From positions 55,345 to 119,344 of IMG/VR virus record IMGVR_UViG_3300021424_000003: 64,000 bases of DNA. One strand, 5' to 3'. The stretch is from a virus. The notes below the pieces were generated by a model. The model was given only the letters and a program-made list of their open reading frames with translations, did no database searches and had not been told where the DNA came from. Numbering within the stretch: position 1 is the stretch's first letter; each line of letters starts with the position of its first letter. Shown piece by piece: positions 33,907 to 64,000 of this stretch. The translations under genes and the position numbers were made by a program.

Positions 33907-33922
33907 AGCATCTACGGCATGG

Positions 33923-51460: not shown

Positions 51461-51889
51461 ATGGACTTTGATGACGAGTTTGATGAAAGTCCGCCGAATA
51501 GTCCTGATGAGATGGCTATTTGGCTCAGCGAGTTTATGAACGCTGCCGATAGTGCTGCCGATGTTTATCGGAACCACGTCGTTACTCTTATTGCGAACAA
51601 GGTCTACACGGATTTTGGTTATGAAGGCTTTTGCGAACTGATGGTTGCTATGGATAAAAAGGCTGGGTGGATTTCCGACATAATCATCGAGAACTCCGAC
51701 CTAGACGACATTATGTTCCAGAAGTACGGAACCTACGACCATCGTGTAATACACAAGGCTCGCAGTACCGAGGCTATTCAGGAACTAAATAAAAAAATCT
51801 GGCGTTTGCGCCGCAAATACGCTAGGGCAATAGTGGACGAACTTATGGTGGGCATAGAAAATCCCGGAGACACAACTCCCGCTTCCTAG
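51461..51889 (+). CDS. acidic hypothetical protein
   Basis: 142 aa from ATG 51461; an earlier TTG start is less likely. Acidic N-terminus (DFDDEFDESPP) then helical. Converges with the SNF2-like helicase gene by 4 bp. Not recognised. Confidence 0.55.
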   Translation: MDFDDEFDESPPNSPDEMAIWLSEFMNAADSAADVYRNHVVTLIANKVYTDFGYEGFCELMVAMDKKAGWISDIIIENSDLDDIMFQKYGTYDHRVIHKARSTEAIQELNKKIWRLRRKYARAIVDELMVGIENPGDTTPAS

Positions 51890-53802
51890 ATACCCATTAG
51901 GTCAAGTATGAGTTTGATAGCCCCGTCGTCGTCGTCTGCCATTACGCCATCGACGGCTGCGTTCACAACGCTACGCTTTCTCTCAATGAGGCTGTAAATC
52001 TCCTCGTCTATCGTCCCCTCGGTGAGTGCGTATGTAACGGTGACGCTTCCTTTCTGTCCGAGTCTATGTAGCCTCGAAAATGTCTGGTCTAAATCTGCTG
52101 GTGTCCACGGAAGTTCTACAAACAAAATGTCTTGTGCTGCTGTGAGTGTGTGTCCAGTTTTGGCAGCCTGAATAGAAAGGACTATGACGGGTGCTTCCTC
52201 GACCGAAAGTTCCTGAAACTTTCTTTTCTGTTCTTCTATCTCAGAAACTTCCATACCGCCCTGTATCCGTAAGTTCCCGAACTTACGAGCCAGTTCATCA
52301 ACAATGTCTCGATGGTGTGCTGCTATCACAACCTTTTTGCCGTCGCTCACTCGCAACTGTACCCATTCCTCAACACTCGCCATTTTCGCTTTTGCGGATA
52401 ACCGTCGTAGAACAGAAAGTCTCACCAATGTTTCGTTACTCTCTGCTTTTATTCTTGCCACTACCGCCGCCGAACGGGGTGACTGTCCGAGTTCTTTCGC
52501 TATCTGCTTCGCTCGTTCGACCAGATAATCAACTATGTCCCTTTCTGCCTTGCGATACTCCGCCATAGAGTTTGCGTTCCCCTCGACCAGCACAGGGCTG
52601 TGTATTACTGGGGGCAACTCGGATAGAACTTGGTCTTTCGTTCTCCGTATGTAGCAAGTTCCCCGTAGTCTGTCGTTGAGTTCGTCTAAGTGTGAGTGAC
52701 CGCTTATGTTCCATTGACCGTAACTATCCTGAAATGCGTTACAGTACCTACGATAAAACCCCCATAAGCCGCCGAACTCTTTGAGTTTGCCCAGTATTTC
52801 CAACTGAGATGCGTACTCCGCTGGTCTATTCGTAACTGGCGTTCCGGTTAGACACAGAACTAAACCGTCTTTTGCGGCGCTTTTGGCTACCCTCTGAGCG
52901 GACTTCGTTCGCTTCGCCGTAGTCGTCTTACAGTAGTGGCTCTCGTCGAAAACATACGAGCGATGCTTCGACAGTTGCTTTTCCCACTTAGTTAGGTTGC
53001 TGTAACCAACTACCAACACGTCGTAGGTGCCCTGTTCGGGTACTTCCTTTGCCCCTGGGCGTATGACCTCAACCCTGCGTTCGGGTAGCCAACGGTTGTA
53101 TTCGGCTTTCCAGTTGAGAACGAGACTCGGTGGGCAAACAACTACTGCCGGATAACTGTCCCACACGTGCTCAATAGTCGCTATCGCTTGGAGAGTCTTA
53201 CCCAACCCCATCTCGTCGGCTATGAATACTCTCTTGGCATTGGATGCGTAGGCTACGCCAGCCCTCTGATACGGGAGAAGTTCCGCTCTGAGGCTCGGTA
53301 TCACAATCTCTGCGTCGGTGGAACGTGACGCTTCTATGAGCTTCCCGACCTCTTTCTTGACCGACTCCGAGTACGCTCGTATCTCGTCGTCTAGCGGGAT
53401 AGAGAAATGCTCCGCCCACGCGATTACCTCAGCAACTGAGGACTTTGGAGCCATCCACGCCTTTTTCGTGGAACTCCAAGTTATTCCGGGAACCTGCTTG
53501 ACCGACTTGATAATGACTCTCTCGTATGGGAACTCCAAATACAACCAGTCGCCGTCCATTGAGACATTCCTTCCAGTCCGCTTCTTGGGGACTGGAAACG
53601 TGAGAACTTCGTTTTCTATGATAAACCCGTGCCGTACAGCGAAAAATCGAGCGTCCTCTATCGAGGTAACGGGCAGTCGCCATACCCTCGAAATCTTGTC
53701 CCATTTGGAGCCGGTAATCCGTTTTATCTCGTCTACCTGCTCTTTGTCGTACGGAAAGTCCAGAACAAGATGGTCGTTCACTATTCGCAAGGTAGAACTC
53801 AT
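51886..53802 (-). CDS. SNF2/SMARCAL1-like DNA helicase
   Basis: 638 aa. N-terminal tandem beta modules (LRIVNDHLVLDFPYDKEQ and WLYLEFPYERVIIKSV, each ending in W-x-x-P/A) resemble HARP-type motifs. The SF2 core follows: DEMGLGKTLQ (Walker A, residues about 195-204), DESHY (DEAH-type), LTGTPVTNRP, and C-terminal SRLHRLGQKG. HARP-bearing SNF2 proteins rewind or anneal DNA and remodel forks; several phages carry short versions. It probably supports replication or repair. Confidence 0.85.
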   Translation of the reverse strand: MSSTLRIVNDHLVLDFPYDKEQVDEIKRITGSKWDKISRVWRLPVTSIEDARFFAVRHGFIIENEVLTFPVPKKRTGRNVSMDGDWLYLEFPYERVIIKSVKQVPGITWSSTKKAWMAPKSSVAEVIAWAEHFSIPLDDEIRAYSESVKKEVGKLIEASRSTDAEIVIPSLRAELLPYQRAGVAYASNAKRVFIADEMGLGKTLQAIATIEHVWDSYPAVVVCPPSLVLNWKAEYNRWLPERRVEVIRPGAKEVPEQGTYDVLVVGYSNLTKWEKQLSKHRSYVFDESHYCKTTTAKRTKSAQRVAKSAAKDGLVLCLTGTPVTNRPAEYASQLEILGKLKEFGGLWGFYRRYCNAFQDSYGQWNISGHSHLDELNDRLRGTCYIRRTKDQVLSELPPVIHSPVLVEGNANSMAEYRKAERDIVDYLVERAKQIAKELGQSPRSAAVVARIKAESNETLVRLSVLRRLSAKAKMASVEEWVQLRVSDGKKVVIAAHHRDIVDELARKFGNLRIQGGMEVSEIEEQKRKFQELSVEEAPVIVLSIQAAKTGHTLTAAQDILFVELPWTPADLDQTFSRLHRLGQKGSVTVTYALTEGTIDEEIYSLIERKRSVVNAAVDGVMADDDDGAIKLILDLMGI

Positions 53803-54307: not shown

Positions 54308-54335
54308 ACAATAACGAAGGGGGGTAAGAGTCTCC
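54308..54335 (-). promoter_or_regulatory. early promoter copy P1
   Basis: GGAGACTCTTACCCCCC, 5 nt, TATTGT, then 7 nt to the ATG at 54300. Confidence 0.8.
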
Positions 54336-54427
54336 CCGACCCGTTCGGCGGTTCCCTCTCCCCTCATGAGCCGAGAGCCCCCATTGGGGGCGAAGCGGAA
54401 CCCGGGGCTCCCGCCATAAACAAGAAC

Positions 54428-54462
54428 CCCCTCCCCGAATGATGTGCGGTGGGGAGAGGGCT
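54428..54462 (-). terminator. terminator of the 54820-54477 operon
   Basis: On the minus strand a C-rich CCCTCTCCCC arm pairs with GGGGAGGGGG and is followed by TTCTTGTTT. Confidence 0.55.
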
Positions 54463-54476
54463 CCTGCGACCCCAGC

Positions 54477-54644
54477 CTAGTCCACGTGGAGTTTCTTGCG
54501 ACACCAAGCACAACGCATACCGTCCCACAGTCGGGGGTCGCCCTCGTAGATAGGTTCGGGGGCTGTTACCTGCTTGTCGGAGCACCTAAGGCAGTTGATG
54601 TGCCTGCCTGTTGCCCACGCAGCCTTTCGGCGGTTCTCGCTCAT
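54477..54644 (-). CDS. small zinc-ribbon protein
   Basis: 55 aa; ATGA overlap with the upstream membrane gene. CLRC and CAWC pairs form a zinc ribbon, with GDPRLWDGMR between. Function unknown. Confidence 0.6.
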   Translation of the reverse strand: MSENRRKAAWATGRHINCLRCSDKQVTAPEPIYEGDPRLWDGMRCAWCRKKLHVD

Positions 54645-54820
54645 CGGTACCATTCGGGGTCGTAGGTAAGTTCCCCGTCCTCGTCCTCAGAGGACGAGAA
54701 AAGGGGGACGTTCGCACGTACCCACTTCACCACGGTCACAAGACCAATGGCGAAGATACCGAAGCCGGCCATCTTCACAAGGAAGCCAATGACGATGATG
54801 AATGCTTGCGCTGTTTCCAT
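54641..54820 (-). CDS. small membrane protein
   Basis: 59 aa. One long hydrophobic region (AFIIVIGFLVKMAGFGIFAI) and an acidic C-terminus. Leaderless start 7 nt after the P2 -10. Confidence 0.6.
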   Translation of the reverse strand: METAQAFIIVIGFLVKMAGFGIFAIGLVTVVKWVRANVPLFSSSEDEDGELTYDPEWYR

Positions 54821-54827
54821 GAGGTGA

Positions 54828-54855
54828 ACCTTACCGAAGGGGGGTAATAGTTCCC
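54828..54855 (-). promoter_or_regulatory. early promoter copy P2
   Basis: GGGAACTATTACCCCCC, 5 nt, TAAGGT, then 7 nt to ATG 54820. Confidence 0.8.
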
Positions 54856-54938
54856 CGGGGGCTAATGCCAACTTCGTTCAGTCTCTCATTCATAATCCAA
54901 CCCTATCATTCCGGCAAACGGGGCTCCAAACGGGATTT

Positions 54939-55070
54939 TCAGTCCTCGCTTTCGCAGTCGTGACCGTAGAACCATTCGTTCGCTTCGTCCTCGTCCAGTA
55001 GGCGAAACACACGCCCACACTCAACACACTTGGCCTCGCTGTGAGAGGCGTACACGCTTCTCTCGCTCAT
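54939..55070 (-). CDS. 43-aa zinc-ribbon-like protein
   Basis: CVECGRVFRLLDEDEANEWFYGH ends in HDC: two Cys pairs or Cys/His. The ATG overlaps the upstream TGA (TGATG). Translated from the P3 transcript. Confidence 0.55.
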   Translation of the reverse strand: MSERSVYASHSEAKCVECGRVFRLLDEDEANEWFYGHDCESED

Positions 55071-55312
55071 CAGTAATCCTCGTCCTCGTCGTCCTCGTCG
55101 GCCTCGTCCTTGTCCACCGAGAACCACGCCATAACGGTTCTCAACAGGTTGTCGTAGTCGCCCGAGGTTGCTTCCGATACGAAAGTGTCCACCTCGTCTC
55201 GCAAGCCGTTCCGCTCCATCTCCCTCGTACACCGTGCGAGGATAGAGAAAGCGTTTCCGTCCTCACCGACAAGGCGAATGGAAATGTCTGGGTATTTGGT
55301 CGATGTGTTCAT
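55070..55312 (-). CDS. acidic small protein
   Basis: 80 aa from ATG 55312, six bases after the P3 -10. Ends in an acidic run (DEADEDDEDEDY). Not recognised. Confidence 0.6.
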   Translation of the reverse strand: MNTSTKYPDISIRLVGEDGNAFSILARCTREMERNGLRDEVDTFVSEATSGDYDNLLRTVMAWFSVDKDEADEDDEDEDY

Positions 55313-55318
55313 ACCCCC

Positions 55319-55346
55319 AACATACGCAGAGGGGGTAAGAGTTTCC
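55319..55346 (-). promoter_or_regulatory. early promoter copy P3
   Basis: GGAAACTCTTACCCCCT, 5 nt, TATGTT, then 6 nt to ATG 55312. Confidence 0.8.
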
Positions 55347-55377
55347 GAGAGGGCTTTCCCGAGCCCCGTTTCCCCAT

Positions 55378-55584
55378 TCACCACGGCAGGCTTGTCTTTC
55401 CGAAACGGTGCGCCCAGATGCGCTTAGTACGCCACGACCTCCGCAGGTCGCATAGCCGAACTGTCTCCCTCGGGTCGCCGTGGCAGTCCTCGATGTTCTC
55501 CGCTATGAGTCTCGACAGTCTGGCTAGTTGGCTGTCGCACTCCTCGACGGTGGGCAGTTGGGCTACCCAGTCTCTCCGAGCCAT
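55378..55584 (-). CDS. small basic protein
   Basis: 68 aa (a GTG one codon upstream is possible). Overlaps the upstream stop. Helical with two cysteines; not recognised. Confidence 0.55.
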   Translation of the reverse strand: MARRDWVAQLPTVEECDSQLARLSRLIAENIEDCHGDPRETVRLCDLRRSWRTKRIWAHRFGKTSLPW

Positions 55585-55844
55585 CACTTGTTCCAGCGAC
55601 TATTCCAGTTGCTAGGAAGCCCCCACGGTGTGAGGGTTGCTTCTATCGCTTCCTCGACCGCCTGTATGGCTCTACGTGCGTGACCGTACTTGTGAACGAG
55701 GGCGAGAATGTCGGAGTGCTCGGCTCCTAGTGCGTTCTCGAACCCGTGAGACCTAAGAGCCTTCTCCATAGCCCTTAGGGTCTCGTCGATAGCGTCGAGC
55801 GCCATCGCTGCTGAATGAATAGTGAAAGTGTCGCTGTTGTTCAT
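55584..55844 (-). CDS. helical hypothetical protein
   Basis: 86 aa, leaderless start six bases after the P4 -10. Helical (ALDAIDETLRAMEKALRSHG). N-terminus MNNSD carries the shared downstream AACAGCGAC element. Confidence 0.6.
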   Translation of the reverse strand: MNNSDTFTIHSAAMALDAIDETLRAMEKALRSHGFENALGAEHSDILALVHKYGHARRAIQAVEEAIEATLTPWGLPSNWNSRWNK

Positions 55845-55850
55845 GCCTGA

Positions 55851-55878
55851 ACTGTACCTAAGGGGGGTAACAGTTCCC
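55851..55878 (-). promoter_or_regulatory. early promoter copy P4
   Basis: GGGAACTGTTACCCCCC, 5 nt, TACAGT, then 6 nt to ATG 55844. Back to back with P5. Confidence 0.8.
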
Positions 55879-55928
55879 CCGACCCCTACCCGTGGGCGAC
55901 ACGAAATCCGGGGCTCAGAGCCCCTGTT

Positions 55929-55956
55929 AGAAACTCTTACCCCCCTGCCGTATTAT
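55929..55956 (+). promoter_or_regulatory. early promoter copy P5
   Basis: AGAAACTCTTACCCCCC, 5 nt, TATTAT, then seven C residues to the GTG at 55964. Confidence 0.8.
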
Positions 55957-55963
55957 CCCCCCC

Positions 55964-56332
55964 GTGGATAGCGACAAGAAAGGAACCACAGTGGCAGACA
56001 GCGACTTCATCTTCCGTGTTCGGGAGGCGTTGGAGGGGAGGAAGATAATCCCAGACGGGCACACCATCTTTGCCCCCTCTTTCTACTTCCCACACTTCAC
56101 GGAGGAACAACTAGCAGAGGCGAAACTAATCCGTCGTCACAAGAGCGATGGCACTTGGAAGGGAAGCATTACGACAAACGGCGAGCCCGTGGACGAGTGT
56201 GAAGGGGTCTACAACCTTTCGTTCCTCTACTGGGTGGCTAGCGAGCTCGGAGTTACCGAGTCGGTACAAGCCTCAGGGCGTGGCTTCCAAGCACAAGAGT
56301 TGGTCGGCTACATCACCGACGCTCTGGCCTAA
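55964..56332 (+). CDS. hypothetical protein
   Basis: 122 aa with a leaderless GTG start fixed by P5. Alpha/beta with FYFPHFTEEQLAEAKLI and a C-terminal helix. Not recognised. Confidence 0.65.
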   Translation: MDSDKKGTTVADSDFIFRVREALEGRKIIPDGHTIFAPSFYFPHFTEEQLAEAKLIRRHKSDGTWKGSITTNGEPVDECEGVYNLSFLYWVASELGVTESVQASGRGFQAQELVGYITDALA

Positions 56333-56437
56333 GGAGTCGGGCTGGCCTAAGGGGTCGGGTCGCTCACGGGTTCCGGCCCGTGGGTGCCCCTCACCCCCCT
56401 CCCGAGCCCCGTTTTGGAGGTTTCGGGGGTTGTCTGA

Positions 56438-56465
56438 GGAAACTGATACCCCCCGGTGGTACATT
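56438..56465 (+). promoter_or_regulatory. early promoter copy P6
   Basis: GGAAACTGATACCCCCC, 5 nt, TACATT, then 7 nt to ATG 56473. Confidence 0.8.
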
Positions 56466-56472
56466 CCTACCT

Positions 56473-56628
56473 ATGGAAAGCGACAGCGCACCGAGCATCA
56501 AAGACGAACCGTGGTACGACGAATGGCTCGACCACGAAGCCAGCCGAGCCGAGGCTTACCTCTGTGAGACAGAGCCCGAGAAGCCTGAGCCCGATTTCCC
56601 CGACTACGAAGACGACGGAGTCTTCTAA
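56473..56628 (+). CDS. small acidic protein
   Basis: 51 aa; the leaderless ATG fixed by P6 is preferred over a longer upstream frame that would cross the promoter. Acidic, Pro/Glu-rich (ETEPEKPEPDFPDYEDD). Confidence 0.6.
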   Translation: MESDSAPSIKDEPWYDEWLDHEASRAEAYLCETEPEKPEPDFPDYEDDGVF

Positions 56629-56861
56629 TGACCTACGAAGATTTTGAGATGCTCGTCCGGTCATCGTTCCCCGATGACGGCGACATTCGGTATGGACAGC
56701 ATTGGTTCAACACTCTGTATTCGGTGAAGCCCGAGGTTGCTGACCGCATCAGGGGGACACTCCACGACCCTTTCCACCGGGAGAAAGTTTCAGAGCAGGC
56801 ACAAGGCGTTGCTCGTACTCTCTGGAACGACATTCGTGCTCACGACAGGGTGAGTGAGTAA
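56628..56861 (+). CDS. hypothetical protein
   Basis: 77 aa, TAATG overlap. Helical (YEDFEMLVRSSFPDDG). Second gene of the P6 operon; not recognised. Confidence 0.6.
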   Translation: MTYEDFEMLVRSSFPDDGDIRYGQHWFNTLYSVKPEVADRIRGTLHDPFHREKVSEQAQGVARTLWNDIRAHDRVSE

Positions 56862-57046
56862 TGGGGCTTATCTCTTCTGTCGTCGCCTACAAGGTCGGCA
56901 AGAGGCGTGGTGAACGCCGGGCGGAACGACGCAACAGCGGAGCTCCCGATGGTCCTTACGACCCACGCTGCGACAACTATCATTACTGTAAGGCGCGACA
57001 GGTTTGTAGTGGCGACTGTACTTATGAGGACTTAGAAGATGAGTGA
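56861..57046 (+). CDS. small Cys-containing basic protein
   Basis: 61 aa, start shares a base with the previous stop. Arg-rich centre (GKRRGERRAERR), then C...C...C...C (CDNYHYCKARQVCSGDC), a possible zinc site. Confidence 0.6.
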   Translation: MGLISSVVAYKVGKRRGERRAERRNSGAPDGPYDPRCDNYHYCKARQVCSGDCTYEDLEDE

Positions 57047-57149
57047 AGAAAAGCCGAAAGAAAAGAAAGTCATCATTGGCGGCGAGAAGAAGCCCCGTTC
57101 CGCCAAGATACAAACTAGGCGTGTCCGGAAAAAGTGTTGCCGGGGTTGA
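57039..57149 (+). CDS. 36-aa very basic peptide
   Basis: ATG 57039 overlaps the preceding gene by 8 bp. Lys/Arg-rich and ends in KKCCRG. Last gene of the P6 operon. Confidence 0.5.
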   Translation: MSEEKPKEKKVIIGGEKKPRSAKIQTRRVRKKCCRG

Positions 57150-57152
57150 GCA

Positions 57153-57419
57153 TTACTGTCTTATGGGGCGAACGAAAATAGGTGTCTGCTCTCCGACCCA
57201 AGCACCGACAACATTGAACTCGATGTATTCGATAGCCTCGTCGTATGTCATTCCGTCTCTGAACATCAAAACATCGACGATTTTGTTGTAGTCATAAACA
57301 GCAAGTAGTGGTTCGTTTATCCGTTGTGCGAACCCTATGAGTGCGTCTTCAAACCCGTCAGCCAAAAGAGCTGACTCTCCGATGTCGTTGAGGTATTGGT
57401 CTATGTCGTCTCTCGTCAT
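57153..57419 (-). CDS. hypothetical protein
   Basis: 88 aa from ATG 57419 (a longer frame would overlap the upstream gene). Contains LNDIGESALLADGFEDALIG and MTYDEAIEYIEFNVVGAWVG. I recall this second segment from short actinophage proteins; function unknown. Confidence 0.6.
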   Translation of the reverse strand: MTRDDIDQYLNDIGESALLADGFEDALIGFAQRINEPLLAVYDYNKIVDVLMFRDGMTYDEAIEYIEFNVVGAWVGEQTPIFVRPIRQ

Positions 57420-57423
57420 ACGG

Positions 57424-57615
57424 TCAGAATAGCGTAGGGTCGTTGTCTTTACCAGGGGCAAGACAAAACTCGTGGGCGTACCTAAACTCTTCCTCAACCA
57501 CAGAATGAACTGTCCTGCCACTTCCTTTGAGCCACACTACTGCTCTCCGGACTGTTGAGTTGGACTTTCTATCTAGGGGGTATCCACACTTTTCGCAGAA
57601 GAACAAATCGGTCAT
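57424..57615 (-). CDS. zinc-ribbon protein
   Basis: 63 aa. CEKCGYPL and a later AHEFC. A TATGAT hexamer ends 6 nt before the ATG, again a leaderless arrangement but without the C-rich box. Confidence 0.6.
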   Translation of the reverse strand: MTDLFFCEKCGYPLDRKSNSTVRRAVVWLKGSGRTVHSVVEEEFRYAHEFCLAPGKDNDPTLF

Positions 57616-57653
57616 AAACCAATCATACCGGGGCTTCGGGGGAGGAAAAAACA

Positions 57654-57688
57654 AGGGAAGTGGGTACAGCGACGAAACCCACTTCCCT
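57654..57688 (-). terminator. strong terminator of the P7 operon
   Basis: Perfect 12-bp stem AGGGAAGTGGGT/ACCCACTTCCCT with an 11-nt loop, followed on the minus strand by TTGTTTTTTCC. Confidence 0.85.
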
Positions 57689-57737
57689 CTAACCGTCTCA
57701 ACCGATGTCTGGAAATACCGGGAGCCGGAGTTCTTGC

Positions 57738-58271
57738 CTAATCGAAAGGGTCGTACCCTCTTGTGTTGTAGGGCGGTTGTCCCTTGATGTTCGGAATGGC
57801 ATCGCCGATGTTCTCGCCGATGTTCTCCCAACCTAAGTAGAGAATACGCTTCACGAAAAACTGAATACTGGAACGGACATAGTTGTCCACCATCGCTTCG
57901 GTTAGAAGTCTAGAAACCTGACTTCCATTTTTCTTTCGGTCTTGAAGCGTCTTTACGACTTTTTCTGTGACGTGCTGAGAAATGAAAGCACCTCTGTCTC
58001 GTCTGAGGCCGAGGTCTATCTCTAAGCCTTCTGATAGAACCGAGATGATGGTCTCGCCTATCAGCGTCGTCACTTTGTCGAGAGTTCTCTTGGGGTGGTA
58101 GACCCCCGGCAGAACGCCGTTCCAGTCCTCTACTGAGTATTTGCCTCTACGCTCATAGAGAACGTGAGACACGCCGTAGTCCTGTGATGTCGCCCACGCA
58201 AGGTCGGCCTCTGAGAAACGCAGTCTCAGGGTCACGTACCTCGGCGGTGCGGAAATGGTGTCGCTGTTCAT
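57738..58271 (-). CDS. hypothetical protein
   Basis: 177 aa, ATGA overlap with the upstream gene. Helical centre (TVLSEG-type helices, VVKTLQDRKKNGSQVSRLL). Starts MNSD like several neighbours. Second gene of the P7 operon; not recognised. Confidence 0.6.
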   Translation of the reverse strand: MNSDTISAPPRYVTLRLRFSEADLAWATSQDYGVSHVLYERRGKYSVEDWNGVLPGVYHPKRTLDKVTTLIGETIISVLSEGLEIDLGLRRDRGAFISQHVTEKVVKTLQDRKKNGSQVSRLLTEAMVDNYVRSSIQFFVKRILYLGWENIGENIGDAIPNIKGQPPYNTRGYDPFD

Positions 58272-58621
58272 ACAGTCGAATGCCCTAAGCGGGTTATTTC
58301 ACCGGGAGTAAGACGGTCGATAGCGATAGAGGCAGTCTCTAACAGTCGGCAACCTTTCATGTATGCCTCAGCGTCAGGGCCGTAATGGTCATACCCGTTC
58401 GACCACCAATAGGCCGGGAGTTCATACCCCTTGGCGGCTGGCGACATTAGTTTTAGTTGGTCATCGCTTAGCCCATTCAGCCAACGCTCACGCCAGAGTG
58501 GGTCGTTCCACTCGTCACTGTAAGGGTGTGGAAACTGACGGCTTTCGGGCTCCCAGAGCTCCTCATCTCCCGCGCTGTATGGGTAGGCAATGACCTGTTC
58601 GCTGTTGTGTTCGCTGTTCAT
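58268..58621 (-). CDS. hypothetical protein
   Basis: 117 aa, leaderless start seven bases after the P7 -10. Tyr/Trp-rich (NDPLWRERWLNGLSDDQLK; YWWSNGYDHYGPDAEAY). I associate the WWSNGYDH segment with unknown phage proteins. Confidence 0.6.
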   Translation of the reverse strand: MNSEHNSEQVIAYPYSAGDEELWEPESRQFPHPYSDEWNDPLWRERWLNGLSDDQLKLMSPAAKGYELPAYWWSNGYDHYGPDAEAYMKGCRLLETASIAIDRLTPGEITRLGHSTV

Positions 58622-58628
58622 AGGTGTA

Positions 58629-58656
58629 AATGTATCACCGGGGGGTAAGAGTTTCC
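58629..58656 (-). promoter_or_regulatory. early promoter copy P7
   Basis: GGAAACTCTTACCCCCC, 5 nt, TACATT, then 7 nt to ATG 58621. Confidence 0.82.
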
Positions 58657-58694
58657 TATGGGGCTTTCTGACGAGGCGCCCGGGGCTTCTGACC

Positions 58695-58726
58695 CTCCGA
58701 GAGAGAGGGGGGCTTCTCTCTCGGAG
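58695..58726 (-). terminator. hairpin after the 58735 gene
   Basis: Perfect 12-bp stem CTCCGAGAGAGA/TCTCTCTCGGAG with an 8-nt loop, immediately downstream of the minus-strand gene ending at 58735. No long U tract. Confidence 0.65.
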
Positions 58727-58734
58727 GAGGGGGG

Positions 58735-59061
58735 CTACGGGTGGAACTTGTAGAGGAAGGGGAATGAAGGGTGAGACTTGCGGGATTTCCTACGAAGGCT
58801 CTCTATCTCGTTGCGAGCCCACACGGTCGCTAGGGTCGCCACACAAGACGACGCAACCGTGAGAACAAGCCCGAGAACGAGGTCAAAAAGTCTGCCCGTG
58901 AAGTGTGACCTCACGGTACTGATGGTGCCTGCCAGAGCACACGCCCAGAGAGCCCAAGCAACGAAATGGTAGGGAGCCGTGGGGTACTTCTGGTCTAGCC
59001 ATCGGCTCATACGAGCGTCCCACCTGTCTAGAAGGTTGATGATGTTTCTGTCGCTGTTCAT
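58735..59061 (-). CDS. membrane protein with two spans
   Basis: 108 aa. Hydrophobic segments YHFVAWALWACALAGTI and LFDLVLGLVLTVASSCVATLA; amphipathic N-terminus and basic C-terminus. Leaderless from P8. Could act at the host membrane; function unknown. Confidence 0.62.
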   Translation of the reverse strand: MNSDRNIINLLDRWDARMSRWLDQKYPTAPYHFVAWALWACALAGTISTVRSHFTGRLFDLVLGLVLTVASSCVATLATVWARNEIESLRRKSRKSHPSFPFLYKFHP

Positions 59062-59068
59062 ACGGGTT

Positions 59069-59096
59069 ACCTTACAGAGGGGGGGTAAGAGTTTCC
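59069..59096 (-). promoter_or_regulatory. early promoter copy P8
   Basis: GGAAACTCTTACCCCCC, 5 nt, TAAGGT, then 7 nt to ATG 59061. Confidence 0.8.
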
Positions 59097-59181
59097 GAGG
59101 GACACCCCGGGGCTCCGATGTGAGAAAGACAAGGGGAGACAGGTCGAGGGGGCGACCTTCTCAACCCTTGCCTTTCTCTCT

Positions 59182-59202
59182 CTGTCTGCCAGCGACAGAC
59201 AG
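59182..59202 (-). terminator. hairpin after the 59209 gene
   Basis: CTGTCTG/CAGACAG stem with a 7-nt loop just downstream of the minus-strand stop. Confidence 0.5.
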
Positions 59203-59208
59203 ACAGAA

Positions 59209-59493
59209 CTAGACGACTGTCCTCATTGGGATAATCGGTCGGGGGATACCGTGAGGGTCGCAGTCGTCCTCGTTGGTCTCTTGCTGTGGGCAGTATCGAG
59301 GGTCAATGCCCCAAGTGTCCTGCCACACTTTCGCAAGTGCGTAAGCCTGCCCCACCGTGAGACACGGAATGGAGAAGCGGTGGCTGTCGCTACTGTCCCC
59401 AGTCGGGCTGGATAGCCAAACCGTGAGAGTGGTGTCCACTACTTGTAGTGCTATGGGTGTGCCCTTGTAAGAGGCGTATTTGGTTGTTTCCAT
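59209..59493 (-). CDS. hypothetical protein
   Basis: 94 aa, leaderless from P9. Beta-rich (IALQVVDTTLTVWLSS). Cys pair and acidic segment near the C-terminus (YCPQQETNEDDCDPHG). Not recognised. Confidence 0.6.
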   Translation of the reverse strand: METTKYASYKGTPIALQVVDTTLTVWLSSPTGDSSDSHRFSIPCLTVGQAYALAKVWQDTWGIDPRYCPQQETNEDDCDPHGIPRPIIPMRTVV

Positions 59494-59500
59494 AGGGTGA

Positions 59501-59528
59501 ACATTAGTGAAGGGGGGTAAGAGTTCCC
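59501..59528 (-). promoter_or_regulatory. early promoter copy P9
   Basis: GGGAACTCTTACCCCCC, 5 nt, TAATGT, then 7 nt to ATG 59493. Confidence 0.82.
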
Positions 59529-59569
59529 AAGCCTCGCCATTATCCCCATTCAGAACCCAGAGGCGAGCC

Positions 59570-59751
59570 CCGTATTCATAGGTTGTAACACATCACTATC
59601 CGTTGCAGTCGGCAAACGGGGCTCACCCTCACGGTTCGACTCTTGGGGGTAGGGCAGGCGGGGAGCCTGTCGGCAGGATTACGGGTCACCCGATTTACCT
59701 TGCCGATTAGCGTTATTGGGGCACTCTTCAGTCCCCACCCGCCCTACGACC
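59570..59751. other. structured gap with two long inverted repeats
   Basis: GAGCCCCGT near 59570 pairs with ACGGGGCTC near 59615. A further 16-bp arm GTAGGGCAGGCGGGGA near 59648 is 14/16 complementary to the sequence ending near 59751. No gene covers 59529-59743. Likely terminator or structured RNA. Confidence 0.45.
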
Positions 59752-59917
59752 TGTTTGCGCCTACTGGCACGACATCACCCGTACCGCAGTCGGCGCAGTC
59801 CTCGCCATCAAAGTACCAATAGTCGCCCTCGACCGCCATTTCGCCTTTCAGGACTTGCCCACAGACGGCGCAGGCGTAGCGGGGGGTCTTGGTGGTCTTG
59901 GTGTCGCTGTTCTTCAT
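59744..59917 (-). CDS. small zinc-ribbon protein
   Basis: 57 aa. CAVCGQVL and CADCGTG pairs, with a YWYFDGED centre. Leaderless from P10. Confidence 0.62.
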   Translation of the reverse strand: MKNSDTKTTKTPRYACAVCGQVLKGEMAVEGDYWYFDGEDCADCGTGDVVPVGANRS

Positions 59918-59923
59918 ACGGAC

Positions 59924-59950
59924 AACATAACAAGGGGGGGTAAGAGTTCC
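59924..59950 (-). promoter_or_regulatory. early promoter copy P10
   Basis: GGAACTCTTACCCCCC, 5 nt, TATGTT, then 6 nt to ATG 59917. Confidence 0.8.
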
Positions 59951-60081
59951 CCGCCTATCGCTCTCCCTGCCGAGCCCCGGGTGCTTCGATACGGGTACAC
60001 AAGTGTTTGCCCTGAATGTCGGCAAACGGGGCTTTGCTGTAAGGCTAATGGTTGCGCTGTACCTTGCCATTCCCGGCCTCC

Positions 60082-60450
60082 CTACTTCCAAGTGCCGGCG
60101 TTCCAGACGATTTCCGACAGTCCGAAACAGTCCACGTCTTGCGCCTCGTACTCGTTCACCACGGTTCCACGCAGTTCGCCACGGTTCACCAGACGGACAC
60201 GGCGCACGTTGTAGTAGTCCAGAAAGTTCAGCACGATTTCCACCGCACGGCTCTCACCGCAGAACAGGAGAACGCCCACGGTGTCGCCGTAGTCGTCACG
60301 GATAGCCGTCCACCGGCCTCCGCAGGTGGCGAGGAAGGTGGGCGCACCCATCTGCCTGATGACCTCTTGGGGGTCGCACGCACGGAACCCGGTACGGTCA
60401 CGGGCGAGAAGGTGGATGAGGGTTGCTTGGGTCTTGGTCGCTGTTGCCAT
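60082..60450 (-). CDS. hypothetical protein
   Basis: 122 aa, leaderless from P11. Alpha/beta with IRDDYGDTVGVLLFCGESRAVEI and a C-terminal GLSEIVWNAGTW. Not recognised. Confidence 0.6.
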   Translation of the reverse strand: MATATKTQATLIHLLARDRTGFRACDPQEVIRQMGAPTFLATCGGRWTAIRDDYGDTVGVLLFCGESRAVEIVLNFLDYYNVRRVRLVNRGELRGTVVNEYEAQDVDCFGLSEIVWNAGTWK

Positions 60451-60457
60451 AGGTGAG

Positions 60458-60485
60458 ACATTACGGGAGGGGGGTAACAGTTCCC
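60458..60485 (-). promoter_or_regulatory. early promoter copy P11
   Basis: GGGAACTGTTACCCCCC, 5 nt, TAATGT, then 7 nt to ATG 60450. Confidence 0.82.
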
Positions 60486-60566
60486 GCAGGCTCTCTCTCT
60501 CGAGCCCCGCGTTCCGTGTCGCCCCCGAAGGGGGCTAACGGCTCAGGAGGGACGGGGTGGGTCGGG

Positions 60567-60594
60567 GGAAACTTCTACCCCCTCCACCTAGTGT
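60567..60594 (+). promoter_or_regulatory. early promoter copy P12 (with leader)
   Basis: GGAAACTTCTACCCCCT, 5 nt, TAGTGT. A leader of about 30 nt containing AACAGCGAC and GAGGAGG precedes ATG 60628. Confidence 0.7.
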
Positions 60595-60627
60595 CTACTC
60601 AACAGCGACGACCTGAGGAGGTTCCTA

Positions 60628-60879
60628 ATGGGCTGGTATGGCGGCGAGTGGGTCAATGGCCCGTGCGAGGACGCTCCGTGTTGTGGGTGCTGTGGCCCCT
60701 CTCTCGACCGAGCCGACGACCTGTATTGGGAGGAGCGCTCTCGCTACGAGGACGACGACCCGGACGCAGGGTGGGAGGACGACGACGAGGACGAGGACGA
60801 CGACCCGGACGACGAGAACGGGGACTACTGGCAGGCCGAGGACTCGGCCTTAGAGTCATCACTATTTGGGGACTGCTGA
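60628..60879 (+). CDS. acidic Cys-rich small protein
   Basis: 83 aa, RBS GAGGAGG. CEDAPCCGCCGP N-terminal cluster, then a long Asp/Glu run (DDDEDEDDDPDDENGD). A metal-binding or DNA-mimic role is possible; unproven. Confidence 0.6.
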   Translation: MGWYGGEWVNGPCEDAPCCGCCGPSLDRADDLYWEERSRYEDDDPDAGWEDDDEDEDDDPDDENGDYWQAEDSALESSLFGDC

Positions 60880-60987
60880 CCGCAGGGGGGCGAGGCTCGG
60901 GCTTCTCCCCTCACGGGAGCCCCGGTCTCTGTCTGTTTCTTGCGGAACTTTAGGGTTTGGCATGGAAACACGGGGCTCCTAGGGGTA

Positions 60988-61131
60988 TTAGTGCCGGAAC
61001 TCTGCCCACGGGTCACGGCCTGCCGCTAGTTCCTCTTGCTCCCAAAAGATGAGGTCATACGCCCAATGGTCGCACTCGTAGCACGGACACTTGCTCTCGT
61101 GTCCTTCCGGCTGCTCGGGTCTCGGCCTCAT
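60988..61131 (-). CDS. 47-aa hypothetical protein
   Basis: ATGA overlap with the 163-aa gene. KCPCYECDHWAYDLIFWEQEE: a compact Cys/His cluster then Trp-rich helix, ending PWAEFRH. I recall this C-terminal pattern from actinophage small proteins. Third gene of the P13 operon. Confidence 0.6.
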   Translation of the reverse strand: MRPRPEQPEGHESKCPCYECDHWAYDLIFWEQEELAAGRDPWAEFRH

Positions 61132-61619
61132 ACCGTGAACGCTCTCTGCTTCGCCCCTATGAGGGCTGCCTTCTCCGGGTCACCCACTCGTCGCCCCTCT
61201 CGGAACCCGACAGGATTACGGAGGCCTTCGGGGAGAACCCACAAGTGGTATTGGTTGGCCTCGTCCACTAGGTCACTCTCCGGAGGGTAAATCTCGACGG
61301 CCTCTCTCTCGTCGCCCATTAGTTCGCTCTTGATGCGTTGGAGATGCCGCCAATCGTGAACGGCCTTCTTGTCTCGCCTCTTGATGGACAGCCATACCCA
61401 CACTCCCTCCTCCCTCTCAATCGGGATACAGGACACTTGGTAAATGTTGTTGATGAAAGTGGTGGAGTGCTGCCGGTACTCGGCTAGGCCATTCAGCTCG
61501 TCCTCGGGTAACCCGGCGGCAAGTAATCTGCTGCGTGTCTTCTCGAAGGGCGGCAGTACGGCCTGCTCCCACTCGCCCCACTCTCTCGGTGCGGTGCGAC
61601 CGTTCTTCTTCTTGGTCAT
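61128..61619 (-). CDS. DUF7694-like conserved phage protein
   Basis: 163 aa. NNIYQVSCIPIEREEGVWVWLSIKRRD (seen as NNIYQVSC, GVWVWLSIKRRD), HDWRHLQRIKSELMG, EAVEIYPPESDLVDEANQYH form a block conserved in many phages (DUF7694, from memory). Function unknown. Second gene of the P13 operon, ATGA overlaps on both sides. Confidence 0.75.
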   Translation of the reverse strand: MTKKKNGRTAPREWGEWEQAVLPPFEKTRSRLLAAGLPEDELNGLAEYRQHSTTFINNIYQVSCIPIEREEGVWVWLSIKRRDKKAVHDWRHLQRIKSELMGDEREAVEIYPPESDLVDEANQYHLWVLPEGLRNPVGFREGRRVGDPEKAALIGAKQRAFTV

Positions 61620-61768
61620 AGCCAGTCCACCAAGTCGCCATCGGCAATCTCGGAGTAGTCAAGGTCATTGGCATCGGCAATCGCCTGCCATACGGCCTCT
61701 TCCGTGAGGGGCACGTCCCAATCGATGTAGTCGTGCCATGTCTTTGTCTTTTTCGGGTCGCTGGTCAT
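61616..61768 (-). CDS. 50-aa acidic protein
   Basis: Leaderless from P13. Helical, acidic (LTEEAVWQAIADANDLDYSE) ending DLVDWL. Overlaps the DUF7694-like gene by 4 bp. Confidence 0.6.
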   Translation of the reverse strand: MTSDPKKTKTWHDYIDWDVPLTEEAVWQAIADANDLDYSEIADGDLVDWL

Positions 61769-61775
61769 GGGTAGG

Positions 61776-61802
61776 AATGTAGCAGAGGGGGGTAAGAGTT
61801 CC
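61776..61802 (-). promoter_or_regulatory. early promoter copy P13
   Basis: GGAACTCTTACCCCCC, 5 nt, TACATT, then 7 nt to ATG 61768. Confidence 0.8.
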
Positions 61803-61908
61803 GAAACGCTCGCGAGCCCCGATGTCCGGGTAAGCCCTGCTTGCTACCGCAAACTAGCGCTAGCAAGAGCAAGCATAGAAGTCGAGAGAACGAGGCTGGG
61901 GTAGCCTA

Positions 61909-61936
61909 GGAAACTGTTACCCCCCTTCGGTATTAT
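61909..61936 (+). promoter_or_regulatory. early promoter copy P14 (with leader)
   Basis: GGAAACTGTTACCCCCC, 5 nt, TATTAT. A GAGGGGG RBS lies before ATG 61963. Confidence 0.8.
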
Positions 61937-61962
61937 CCAGCCATAGCCGAGGGGGTGAAATA

Positions 61963-62130
61963 ATGAAAAGAGTCTACCGGGTATCCCTGTGGACCTCCAT
62001 TGAGGTTGAGGCAGATAACGAAGATGACGCTAGTGATAAAGCGTTCGGGCTTCTCCCCTTCCAGCGCCGACGTAACTTTGATGTTGAGACCCAAGAACTC
62101 AACCAAGACGGGCCCCAAGACCAAGCCTAA
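61963..62130 (+). CDS. 55-aa hypothetical protein
   Basis: RBS GAGGGGG. Starts YRVSLWTSIEVEADNEDDA, a beta strand pattern followed by an acidic helix, and ends NQDGPQDQA. Single-gene unit from P14. Confidence 0.6.
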   Translation: MKRVYRVSLWTSIEVEADNEDDASDKAFGLLPFQRRRNFDVETQELNQDGPQDQA

Positions 62131-62148
62131 GGTCAGGGAGGTCCCTTA

Positions 62149-62186
62149 GGGAGAGGGGAACCGTACCCCGAGAGTTCCCCTCTCCC
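62149..62186 (+). terminator. hairpin after the 61963 gene
   Basis: Perfect 13-bp stem GGGAGAGGGGAAC/GTTCCCCTCTCCC with a 12-nt loop, 18 bp after the stop. Confidence 0.65.
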
Positions 62187-62305
62187 CTCCTCCCTGCAAC
62201 TGGGCGGGATGAGTGTCTGTGTTACCACAGCACCGAGAGGAACCTAGCACCGTGAAGCCCCGTTCTAGTGGAACTGCGAGTTGGTAGCTCGGGGCTCCCC
62301 CGCAG

Positions 62306-62362
62306 TCACCGCCCCCCATCGGTCGGCTCGTGGTCGGCTCGGTGGCAGTAGCAGCACTTCAT
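62306..62362 (-). CDS. 18-aa Cys-rich micropeptide
   Basis: ATGA overlap with the upstream gene. MKCCYCHRADHEP: three Cys and two His in 12 residues. Last frame of the P15 operon; coding status rests on the overlap and the Cys/His pattern. Confidence 0.4.
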   Translation of the reverse strand: MKCCYCHRADHEPTDGGR

Positions 62363-62589
62363 TTGGCAGCACTCCCGTCGTTGTCCGGCTTCTCGTCCAT
62401 CGTCTGAATGATGCGCCCGTCCGCGTCCGTGAGCGTTATCGCTCCGCGTGCCCACAATGCGACATTTGGATAAGCGAGGGACAACACGCGGAATGTCCCG
62501 GTGAGTATCGCGTCGGCATCGTCGGTCGCGTGAACGGTGACCGACTTGCGGTGGCCGTCCAGTTCGGCAGTGAGTGTGTAGGTGTTCAT
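62359..62589 (-). CDS. small hypothetical protein
   Basis: 76 aa; ATG overlaps the upstream TAA (TAATG). Beta-rich (YTLTAELDGHRKSVTVHA) then a DADGRIIQTMDE end. Not recognised. Confidence 0.6.
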   Translation of the reverse strand: MNTYTLTAELDGHRKSVTVHATDDADAILTGTFRVLSLAYPNVALWARGAITLTDADGRIIQTMDEKPDNDGSAAK

Positions 62590-62651
62590 TAGAAACCTGC
62601 CTCGCCACAGGCGTAGCACTGGTAGCGACCGGCGAACCTGTCCTCGCTCAC
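62589..62651 (-). CDS. 20-aa zinc-knuckle micropeptide
   Basis: GTG at 62651 overlaps the previous stop (GTGA), and the stop overlaps the next ATG. YQCYACGEAGF is a minimal CxxC pair. The chain of overlaps argues that it is translated. Confidence 0.45.
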   Translation of the reverse strand: MSEDRFAGRYQCYACGEAGF

Positions 62652-62827
62652 CAGTCACCCTCCAACAGTTCACGGGCATCTTCGGCTGTGCCGATTTCCA
62701 GTTCACCACCGAGGTATCGCTTCTTCGGGCACCGAGCCTTGTGCGTGGACAGTTCACGCTGGGCCGTGTAGCCGTCGTAGGTGAATGTCTGCTCGCAATA
62801 CGGGCAGGTGAGTGTCTCCTGGCTCAT
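62648..62827 (-). CDS. small zinc-finger protein
   Basis: 59 aa, ATGA overlap. CPYCEQTFTYDGYTAQRELSTH followed by KARC gives a C2-H-C finger. Possibly nucleic-acid binding. Confidence 0.65.
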   Translation of the reverse strand: MSQETLTCPYCEQTFTYDGYTAQRELSTHKARCPKKRYLGGELEIGTAEDARELLEGDW

Positions 62828-63087
62828 CACCAGCCTCCCAGTTCGTCGAGGTAATCCTGCTCGTCTTCCCAACGGGCGAGAGCCTCCCATTCGGGAGTAC
62901 CGAACTCGGGTCGGTCAGAGGGGCGCTCCTCGCCATCACCCTCGGGGGCTGAAAGGTAACCCGCCCGATGAGCAATACCCGACTGCCAAGCACGGTCGGC
63001 ATCGGCAGAGCGTCCACCGCCCGAAACCCAAGAAGAAACGAACTCTGCGTAAGCCAGTCCCTCGTCCTCGTAATCCTCGTAATCCAT
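62827..63087 (-). CDS. acidic hypothetical protein
   Basis: 86 aa, RBS GAGAGGG; first gene of the five-gene P15 operon. Acidic and aromatic (DYEDYEDEGLAYAEFVSSW). Not recognised. Confidence 0.6.
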   Translation of the reverse strand: MDYEDYEDEGLAYAEFVSSWVSGGGRSADADRAWQSGIAHRAGYLSAPEGDGEERPSDRPEFGTPEWEALARWEDEQDYLDELGGW

Positions 63088-63128
63088 TTCCCTCTCGCTT
63101 TCTTGTCGCTGTTGTGATTAGGAACCTA

Positions 63129-63156
63129 AACATAACAAGAGGGGGTAAGAGTTTCC
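63129..63156 (-). promoter_or_regulatory. early promoter copy P15 (with leader)
   Basis: GGAAACTCTTACCCCCT, 5 nt, TATGTT. The leader of about 35 nt carries AACAGCGAC and a GAGAGGG RBS. Confidence 0.75.
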
Positions 63157-63251
63157 GGAGGGGCTCGCTGCTGAGCCCCGTGGTACGACATTTGGTATCA
63201 GCTCAGCCGGGGCTCCACCGCGAGTAGGGGCAAGGCGTTCGGTTCGGTTGG

Positions 63252-63572
63252 TCAGGCTAGTTTGTAGTGACCGCCTCGTGCCTCGTAGCGGGTCGTTGCC
63301 TCGTCGAGAGTGGCGCAGTAGTCGCCACAGGAGAAAGACCAACCCCTATCAGGGTGGTCAATGGCGTCCCACACGGCGAACGGGTGGTAAGCGTTGTGAG
63401 GTAGATGGCACAGGACAACCCAACAAGCGTAAGTGTCCACGTCGCTCGGACTCATGAGCCAGCAGGCTAGAACGGTCACGGGGTCGCTCATACTTGCCGA
63501 CTGCACGACCTCGCTCACGGACAATGTACGCATAGGGTAGGTGTCGGTTGGGGATTTGGAAGTGTTGGTCAT
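63252..63572 (-). CDS. hypothetical protein
   Basis: 106 aa, leaderless from P16. Centre rich in Trp, Cys and His (TYACWVVLCHLPHNAYHPFAVW). I recall this cysteine/histidine stretch from unknown phage proteins. No catalytic motif. Confidence 0.6.
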   Translation of the reverse strand: MTNTSKSPTDTYPMRTLSVSEVVQSASMSDPVTVLACWLMSPSDVDTYACWVVLCHLPHNAYHPFAVWDAIDHPDRGWSFSCGDYCATLDEATTRYEARGGHYKLA

Positions 63573-63579
63573 AGGTAGG

Positions 63580-63606
63580 AATGTAGCACGAGAGGGTAAT
63601 AGTTTC
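63580..63606 (-). promoter_or_regulatory. early promoter copy P16 (divergent sequence)
   Basis: GAAACTATTACCCTCT, 5 nt, TACATT, then 7 nt to ATG 63572. Least C-rich copy. Confidence 0.7.
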
Positions 63607-63738
63607 GCTAGTGGATAGTTTCAGAGTCAATAAGCGGGGCTTCTCGGGGCAAGAAGAAAGACCCCTCGCCCACCCTCCGAAACTGGGGCTAGCACCCACC
63701 GATACAGAGGGCTGTATCAGAGGAGGACGGTCGATAGC

Positions 63739-63785
63739 CGGAGGGAGTGTCGCGGTGACTAGTACACCGGAGGGACTGTCGCGGT
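63739..63785. repeat. short direct repeat CCGGAGGGA(G/C)TGTCGCGGT
   Basis: Two copies near 63739 and 63766, differing at one base, at the 3' end of the putative P17 gene. The gap 63607-63758 otherwise shows no gene. Confidence 0.6.
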
Positions 63786-63854
63786 TCGGAGCCTTATCCA
63801 GAAGGGAGCCGTGTATTCAGTTGTCTCGGAGGGGAGGCGAGGAGCCTCTCTCAC
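63759..63854 (-). CDS. 31-aa leaderless peptide (putative)
   Basis: GTG at 63854 lies exactly 7 nt after the P17 -10, the fixed spacing of the family, which is the main support. The peptide (VREAPRLPSETTEYTAPFW) has no motif. Confidence 0.4.
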   Translation of the reverse strand: MREAPRLPSETTEYTAPFWIRLRTATVPPVY

Positions 63855-63861
63855 AAGGGAC

Positions 63862-63888
63862 ACATTACGGGAGGGGGGTAAGAGTTCC
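63862..63888 (-). promoter_or_regulatory. early promoter copy P17
   Basis: GGAACTCTTACCCCCC, 5 nt, TAATGT, then 7 nt to GTG 63854. Confidence 0.8.
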
Positions 63889-64000
63889 AAGGGTCGCCAG
63901 TATGAGTCGTTTCGGAGCCCCGGGTGTCCCCCTTCGGTGCTAAGCACCATCGGGGCTCGGCAGAGAGTGAGAGTGTCCCCCTGCCCCCTGCCCCCTGCCA

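What the first reader, a model, noticed from the sequence alone, without database searches (positions are those of the whole stretch)
54308..63888. Seventeen near-identical promoters, fourteen of them driving leaderless mRNAs
Every copy is GG(G/A)AACTCTTACCCCCC, exactly 5 nt, then a TAnnnT hexamer. In 14 copies the ATG or GTG follows after only 6-7 nt; the other three (P12, P14, P15) have a leader and a Shine-Dalgarno site. Copies occur on both strands, always oriented towards the gene they precede, and nowhere in the first 54 kb. The C-rich tract sits where promoter spacer DNA would be, so a repressor or activator binding this box could control the whole set at once, comparable to start-associated sequences in some mycobacteriophages.
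Basis: seen in the sequence. Interest (0 to 1): 0.92.

Follow-up and report, generated by a model that had tools for sequence, protein, structure and literature searches.

The report
Phage's private leaderless promoter array
A virus of (probably) actinobacteria drives 17 transcripts from near-identical promoters, most of them predicted to start exactly at the start codon, and its relatives carry the same kind of array with a different "password" sequence that was replaced at almost every promoter of each genome, which points to a phage-encoded regulator that recognises only its own promoters.

Summary
All 17 copies of GGRAACTNTTACCCCCC sit exactly 5 nt before TANNNT. They occur only in the last 10 kb of a 119-kb phage record (chance about 0.3 in the window). 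A start codon follows after 6-7 nt in 14. One correction: P17's "GTG" opens a conserved, structured, roughly 200-nt non-coding RNA with no Rfam match, so 13 copies drive leaderless ORFs. P5 is also less certain.

Relatives carry arrays of the same architecture (25-40 copies in the longer records scanned, mostly leaderless). Their -10 and start spacing are the same, but the element between -35 and -10 is lineage-specific. Orthologous leaderless genes carry the element of their own genome in 66 of 70 cross-lineage comparisons. That concerted replacement is best explained by a phage-encoded DNA-binding factor that must match the element.

The phages lack detectable sigma region 2, MerR, HTH_3 (CI/Cro-type) and integrase domains. 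The second WhiB is nearly invariant between lineages. The lead candidate reader is a LexA-type winged-helix protein (window 45072-45359), whose recognition helix varies with the element. This is inferred, not shown. New variant of a known kind.

The parts
54308..54335 (-). P1: box 54319-54335, -10 TATTGT, ATG at 54300 (61-aa ORF, leaderless)
54828..54855 (-). P2: box plus -10 TAAGGT, leaderless ATG (59-aa ORF)
55319..55346 (-). P3: box plus -10 TATGTT, leaderless ATG (80-aa ORF)
55851..55878 (-). P4: box plus -10 TACAGT, leaderless ATG (86-aa ORF)
55929..55956 (+). P5: box plus -10 TATTAT, GTG 7 nt on (122-aa ORF; less certain, a second GTG follows behind an AAGGAA)
56438..56465 (+). P6: box plus -10 TACATT, leaderless ATG (51-aa ORF)
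58629..58656 (-). P7: box plus -10 TACATT, leaderless ATG (117-aa ORF, coupled to the 57738-58271 ORF)
59069..59096 (-). P8: box plus -10 TAAGGT, leaderless ATG (108-aa ORF)
59501..59528 (-). P9: box plus -10 TAATGT, leaderless ATG (94-aa ORF; orthologs in G008 and G012 are also leaderless but behind their own elements)
59924..59951 (-). P10: box plus -10 TATGTT, leaderless ATG (57-aa ORF)
60458..60485 (-). P11: box plus -10 TAATGT, leaderless ATG (122-aa ORF)
60567..60594 (+). P12: box plus -10 TAGTGT, leadered (AACAGCGAC at the predicted start, then GAGGAGG, ATG 33 nt on)
61776..61803 (-). P13: box plus -10 TACATT, leaderless ATG (50-aa ORF)
61909..61936 (+). P14: box plus -10 TATTAT, leadered
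63129..63156 (-). P15: box plus -10 TATGTT, leadered (AACAGCGAC in the leader)
63580..63607 (-). P16: most diverged box (CGAAACTATTACCCTCT) plus -10 TACATT, leaderless ATG (106-aa ORF; orthologs in G008 and G012 are leaderless behind their own elements)
63862..63889 (-). P17: box plus -10 TAATGT, drives the conserved non-coding RNA
63651..63854 (-). Conserved structured non-coding RNA with a terminal stem of about 27-29 pairs, starting 7 nt after the P17 -10
   Evidence: no Rfam match above chance
45072..45359 (+). LexA-type winged-helix DNA-binding domain without a peptidase domain: lead candidate reader of the box (inference)
33857..34297 (+). WhiB-family protein: possible RNA-polymerase partner, not the likely specificity factor
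36678..37016 (+). Protein with weak ribbon-helix-helix and DksA-like zinc-finger matches, conserved in all long relatives: second-line candidate regulator
51886..53802 (-). SNF2-type helicase flanking the array, used to find relatives

Best explanation
The right end of this phage record is a regulon of short, mostly monocistronic, presumably early genes. Each has its own sigma-A-type promoter (TANNNT) placed so that transcription starts on the start codon, giving leaderless mRNAs. The 17-bp box covering the -35/spacer region is the recognition sequence of one phage-encoded DNA-binding factor. Every promoter of a genome must match that factor, so when specificity changed in a lineage the element was replaced at almost all promoters while -10, start spacing and genes were kept. 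I judge it most likely that the factor acts mainly as a repressor that shuts these genes off later in infection, and that may block co-infecting phages of the same type. In this phage, whose box lacks any TTG-like -35, an activating role is a close second. The lead candidate is the LexA-type winged-helix protein (window 45072-45359). The A/C-rich, unstructured first codons probably help leaderless translation. Shown by sequence: box, phase, distribution, concerted replacement, conserved RNA start.
For: 17 boxes at fixed phase to TANNNT, RTG at 6-7 nt in 14. Relatives found by the flanking helicase at 62-72% identity lack this box but have their own arrays at the same place: aGGTTGT, 17-nt spacer ending in a lineage-specific ~11-nt element, TANNNT, 6 nt, ATG. 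Whole-record scans give 25-40 copies per record (G011, G012, G008, G004, G010), nearly all in one block of about 20-25 kb. Between different element lineages 66 of 70 orthologous leaderless promoters, chosen without using the element, fit their own genome's element better. In those cross-lineage pairs elements differ by 40-55%, the -35 by 6-33% and the -10 T, A, T by 0%. Pattern searches gave further lineages with other elements: L147, L154 and L155/L156. The conserved P17 RNA starts 6-7 nt after the -10 wherever it occurs. First codons are 77% A+C against about 48-50% downstream and much less structured (mean -3.9 against -11.1 kcal/mol). The LexA-like helix is identical in three records sharing an element (G012, G016, G017), near-identical in G011 with a close element, and different in G008, G006, G025 and the window.
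Against: No RNA data. Neither box nor element was shown to bind any protein. The LexA-like protein was not found in G022, a 100-kb array-bearing record that may be incomplete, and its gene has no box. Its helix variation follows phylogeny and is not an independent test. No CI/Cro-type repressor or integrase was found, so lysogenic immunity is not indicated. The window's box lacks a TTG-like -35, which fits an activator better than a plain repressor. Mycobacterial reporter work found no sequence preference downstream of a leaderless start (PMC4633059).
Confidence: 0.66

Rival explanations
1. The box is a positive element: an activator or RNA-polymerase partner of the phage reads it in place of the -35 and switches the whole set on, so the set is a private promoter class and not a repressed one.
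For: All 17 boxes keep one phase to the -10, as expected of a promoter element. No TTG-like -35 is present in the window's copies and the sigma-70 scan does not find them above chance. WhiB proteins, known sigma-A partners, are present in all array-bearing records tested that are longer than 8 kb.
Against: Most relatives keep a TTGTNN -35 at 17 nt plus TANNNT, which host polymerase should use unaided. WhiB2 is nearly invariant while elements differ. No MerR-type spacer-binding activator was found.
Confidence: 0.3
2. The box is the -35 region of a phage-encoded sigma factor (GGRAAC resembles ECF-type -35 elements).
For: GGRAAC lies 16 nt before TANNNT, a plausible -35 position. phiC31 carries a gene annotated as a sigma factor together with repeated early-region promoter-like sequences.
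Against: No Sigma70 region 2 in any of six records including this one, while most control genomes gave matches. The -10 is the housekeeping TANNNT. The sigma-region-4-like HTH of window 36041-36685 is conserved across lineages with different elements and looks like a small terminase.
Confidence: 0.06
3. The uniform boxes are recent duplications of a promoter-plus-gene-start cassette that have had no time to diverge, with no regulator reading them.
For: Many small genes side by side, with repeated sequence extending past the start codon.
Against: Downstream genes are dissimilar, upstream and linker bases are random, and in relatives the orthologous genes are old (46-76% mean protein identity between lineages) yet their elements match their own genome, not the ortholog.
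Confidence: 0.04
4. The element differences reflect different hosts' RNA polymerase preferences, not a phage factor.
For: Hosts are unknown and may differ between lineages.
Against: -10 and start spacing are the same in nearly all lineages; the element is confined to the array, and the helicase gene of several of the same phages has a leaderless-like promoter with a different spacer sequence; G004 and G008 orthologs are on average 76% identical yet differ in element.
Confidence: 0.07

Closest known systems
Cluster A mycobacteriophage operators/stoperators (L5, Bxb1, Trixie; PMC6550527)
   Same: Many copies per genome of a short asymmetric site; consensus is genome-specific, differs between related phages, and matches a phage-encoded DNA-binding protein of changing specificity.
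   Different: Most stoperators are not in promoters and block elongation; here every site is in a promoter at fixed phase to the -10. The L5-type consensus is at chance level here. Those phages have an immunity repressor; here no integrase or CI/Cro-type repressor was found.
phiC31 repeated early promoters and conserved inverted repeats (record NC_001978; their role is from general knowledge)
   Same: Around ten near-identical early-region promoter-like repeats (CCCGGGTTGCCGACTCCCTTAC) ahead of genes in an actinophage, sharing a GGTTG...CTTAC look with the relatives' promoters.
   Different: They stand upstream of leadered genes, lack TANNNT at fixed phase, and show no leaderless array above null. 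The motif is absent from the window.
[quoted passage not shown]
   Same: Multi-copy sites next to starts in the non-structural arm; the ESAS consensus differs between subclusters.
   Different: SAS contains a Shine-Dalgarno core just before the start; ESAS is a pair of 17-bp inverted repeats. Neither fits this box (SAS tested).
Actinobacterial leaderless genes (PMC4633059)
   Same: -10 hexamer placed so that +1 is the A/G of ATG/GTG.
   Different: Host leaderless genes are scattered; here much of one phage arm uses one promoter design with a common box.

Membership tests
Leaderless mRNA promoter (actinobacterial type) | TANNNT -10 with RTG 6-7 nt downstream and no Shine-Dalgarno site | tested here: met
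   13 ORFs of 17 boxes; P about 2.5e-14 for RTG spacing in 14
Leaderless mRNA promoter (actinobacterial type) | Transcript 5' end maps to the start codon | not testable with these tools
   Indirect only: the conserved P17 RNA begins 6-7 nt after the -10 in every copy
Cluster K start-associated sequences | GGGATAGGAGCCC within 3-7 nt of starts, with Shine-Dalgarno core | tested here: not met
   One chance-level hit in the window, outside the array
Cluster K extended start-associated sequences | Paired imperfect 17-bp inverted repeats upstream of an SAS | tested here: inconclusive
   Bases upstream of the 17 boxes show no conserved columns; no dedicated inverted-repeat search was run on the array
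Cluster A stoperators | 13-bp GATGAGTGTCAAG-type sites, mostly outside promoters, read by the cluster A immunity repressor | tested here: not met
   Chance-level hits for the L5-type string; all 17 boxes lie in promoters
Genome-specific multi-copy operator system (general kind) | One consensus within a genome, different between relatives, at orthologous sites | tested here: met
   66 of 70 cross-lineage orthologous promoters
Genome-specific multi-copy operator system (general kind) | A cognate phage protein binds the site | not testable with these tools
   Candidates only
phiC31-type early promoters | GGTTGCCGACTCCCTTAC-like repeat | tested here: not met
   No match in the window with up to 3 mismatches
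ECF/phage sigma-factor promoter class | Phage-encoded sigma factor with region 2 | tested here: not met
   No match in six records; some records are fragments

The most novel reading that the evidence does not exclude
These phages use private promoter passwords: a phage factor recognises a promoter element at fixed phase to the -10 and decides, genome-wide, which leaderless early genes (and one non-coding RNA) are expressed, and the element-factor pair is replaced as a set between lineages, giving a promoter-level incompatibility between co-infecting virulent phages without lysogeny.
Probability: 0.25. Interest if true: 0.85.

Novelty: new variant of a known kind. Interest (0 to 1): 0.7.

Why it matters
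It gives many orthologous promoter pairs in which mainly the control element has changed, a natural experiment on how a regulator and its many sites change specificity together. It also shows a group of uncultured phages committing much of a genome arm to leaderless translation. The same regulon drives a conserved, unclassified phage RNA.

Tried and rejected
Exact box in other viral contigs: 36 stretches, nearly all single hits without TANNNT at the right distance, apart from a near-identical contig (L017/L048). A second scan found L144, a different phage with a few copies of the same kind of box. Host assignment by genome contigs failed: no helicase relative, and one terminase hit in a contig binned as Phycisphaerae, judged unreliable. 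WhiB as specificity factor: judged unlikely for WhiB2, near-invariant across lineages. Window 36041-36685 as sigma-like factor: rejected, conserved and terminase-like. Sigma region 2, MerR, HTH_3, tyrosine and serine integrases: not found. Isolated phages Gray and phiC31 show no leaderless array above null, Ottawa only a marginal one (72 against 43-67). The EM motif search missed the L055/L062 group because their -10 reads CATAAT; the repeat search recovered it. EM aligned on the -10 over whole records did not converge on the box for G000, G001 and G006, so counts for the window come from direct scans. One script pattern for L156 matched nothing, so its downstream-element count rests on the listing.
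Full report
What was checked. The box is real and far beyond chance: 16 sites with up to 3 mismatches in the window against 0.27 expected, none of 100 shuffles reaching 16, and a 17th diverged copy. Column counts show T, A, T of the -10 and ten box positions invariant in all 17 (most others nearly so) and exactly 5 weakly constrained bases between box and -10. Bases upstream of the box are random, so this is not a duplicated block. The window is bases 55345-119344 of a 119,344-b virus record, and the box is confined to the last 10 kb. A second, nearly identical contig (L017/L048/G001) carries the first six copies.

The phage. A tail sheath, terminase, major head protein, class II ribonucleotide reductase, Thy1, WhiB and SNF2 helicase were found. 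This fits a contractile-tailed phage of an actinobacterium; the host is inferred from WhiB and the promoter type only. No integrase was detected. The record ends inside the array in a CCCCTG repeat, and relatives have 25-40 copies, so 17 is probably a lower bound.

Leaderless starts. RTG follows the -10 by 6-7 nt in 14 of 17, against a genome-wide 6.8% after TANNNT. P17 breaks the pattern in an informative way: the DNA from its GTG on is 69% identical to L147 and recurs in L154, L155 and L156 (twice in L156), each time 6-7 nt after the -10 of that phage's own promoter type. It folds into a rod with a long terminal stem (z = -3.8), with a both-sides change that keeps the pair at 11 of 57 predicted pairs in a five-sequence alignment (the covariation term itself is not favourable and sequences are few, so modest weight). 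It has no Rfam match above chance. A covariance model finds it only in this clade among the sequences searched. Because the conserved RNA begins at the predicted +1, it supports the start positions of the other promoters.

Downstream element. After the start codon the first 15 nt are 77% A+C (48% further downstream) and weakly structured. An ACAGC-containing stretch follows 8 of 14 starts in the window, in two reading frames, and occurs in the leaders of P12 and P15. L147 and L154 show the same motif, L147 in another frame from most of the window's, while the more distant relatives rarely have it. The frame changes argue for a nucleic-acid-level role. A copy at 58268 follows the ATG of a translationally coupled gene with no promoter, so I favour a translation effect. 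CA repeats downstream of start codons enhance leaderless translation (review PMC9031893), though a mycobacterial selection saw no downstream preference (PMC4633059).

Relatives and concerted replacement. Helicase relatives (25 loci, one of them the near-identical contig) otherwise have no copy of this box, but de novo repeat and aligned-motif searches find arrays in the same place with other elements: TTACTACC, CTAATAGCC, CTAATAARGGA, CTAGTAACC, CTTACAMGG and others, each fairly uniform within a genome and ending at the -10. The window's own clade adds three more: TTGTAAGCCNTCCGTAGG, TTGTCGGGTTGGGTAAGCCC and TTTGTCGGTTAGGGGTGGG. Orthologous leaderless genes were paired between records. Choosing the promoter of the ortholog only by TANNNT-N6/7-RTG, 66 of 70 comparisons between element lineages fit the own-genome matrix better (my sum over the cross-lineage rows). 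The comparisons are not all independent, since a promoter can enter more than once. Between G004 and G008, with 76% mean protein identity, the elements differ at 40% of positions, the -35 at 17% and the -10 T, A, T at none. Two window genes, P9 and P16, have leaderless orthologs with other elements. This is what a trans-acting reader predicts and what drift or host preference does not.

Who reads it. DNA-binding candidates conserved in long records are a LexA-type domain protein, WhiB proteins, and a protein with weak ribbon-helix-helix and DksA-like zinc matches. The second WhiB is nearly identical across lineages. The LexA-like recognition region is VSSSSTIHKFIRQ in three records with one element, VSSSSTIYKILRK with a close one, and LRSSATAYKVLNK, VFSTSTAYKVLFR, YNSTSSGKTLLEN and YTSSSTAHLLIQH with others. 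That is suggestive only: it follows phylogeny, and the gene was not found in one 100-kb array-bearing record.

Sign of control. Relatives have serviceable sigma-A promoters (TTGTNN, 17 nt, TANNNT), so a spacer element there most simply serves a repressor; the window's copies lack the TTG and could need an activator. I put repression somewhat ahead of activation, but this is open.

Comparison. As a kind it works like genome-specific multi-copy operator systems (cluster A stoperators, PMC6550527) and recalls phiC31's repeated early-region promoters. It is a member of none of the specific families tested: the SAS, L5-type stoperator and phiC31 motifs are at or below chance in the window and no sigma factor was found. 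What is new is that all sites are promoters at fixed phase, mostly leaderless, and replaced in concert across many uncultured lineages. The paper library was searched for leaderless phage promoters, start-associated sequences and stoperators without finding this system; subscription papers are not covered.

Noticed in passing
window 63651-63854 (minus); L147 12662-12867; L154 2809-3016; L155 2975-3182; L156 1095-1302 and 2729-2932: A conserved structured non-coding RNA of about 205 nt with a long terminal stem and several CCUCC-like stretches, driven by the array promoters, with no Rfam match. The CCUCC motifs could in principle pair with Shine-Dalgarno sites, which leaderless mRNAs lack; untested speculation.
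   Followed up: partly
window 54000-64000: GAGCCCC/GGGGCTC inverted repeats are concentrated between genes of the array (21 against 9 in the other 54 kb), possibly terminators.
   Followed up: no
L060, L066, L055, L062 upstream of the helicase: A second intergenic repeat, TTTCCRCCACCGT-N-TTAGAAA-like, is scattered between genes of the relatives' arrays.
   Followed up: no
G011 17364, G012 87263, G006 33339, G005 21101, G010 21411: The helicase gene of these relatives has its own leaderless-like promoter AAACGCTGGGCTATGATGC-GTG, one copy per genome, without the array element.
   Followed up: partly
L118, L119, L122, L125, L128: A phage group found through a DUF7694 gene also has leaderless promoters (TTGC...AGTGTGC TATACT GTATAT ATG) with very CA-rich first codons.
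   Followed up: partly
L144 (record G026): Carries four copies of the window-type box (one leaderless, others mostly leadered) but no blastn or tblastx similarity to the window at E 1e-5.
   Followed up: partly
L045 17999-19462: A tryptophan-halogenase-like gene (Pfam E 2e-96) lies near this phage's tail-fibre genes.
   Followed up: no
window 56318-56390: ARAGORN reports a tRNA-Leu inside the array that Rfam does not confirm; probably a false positive.
   Followed up: partly
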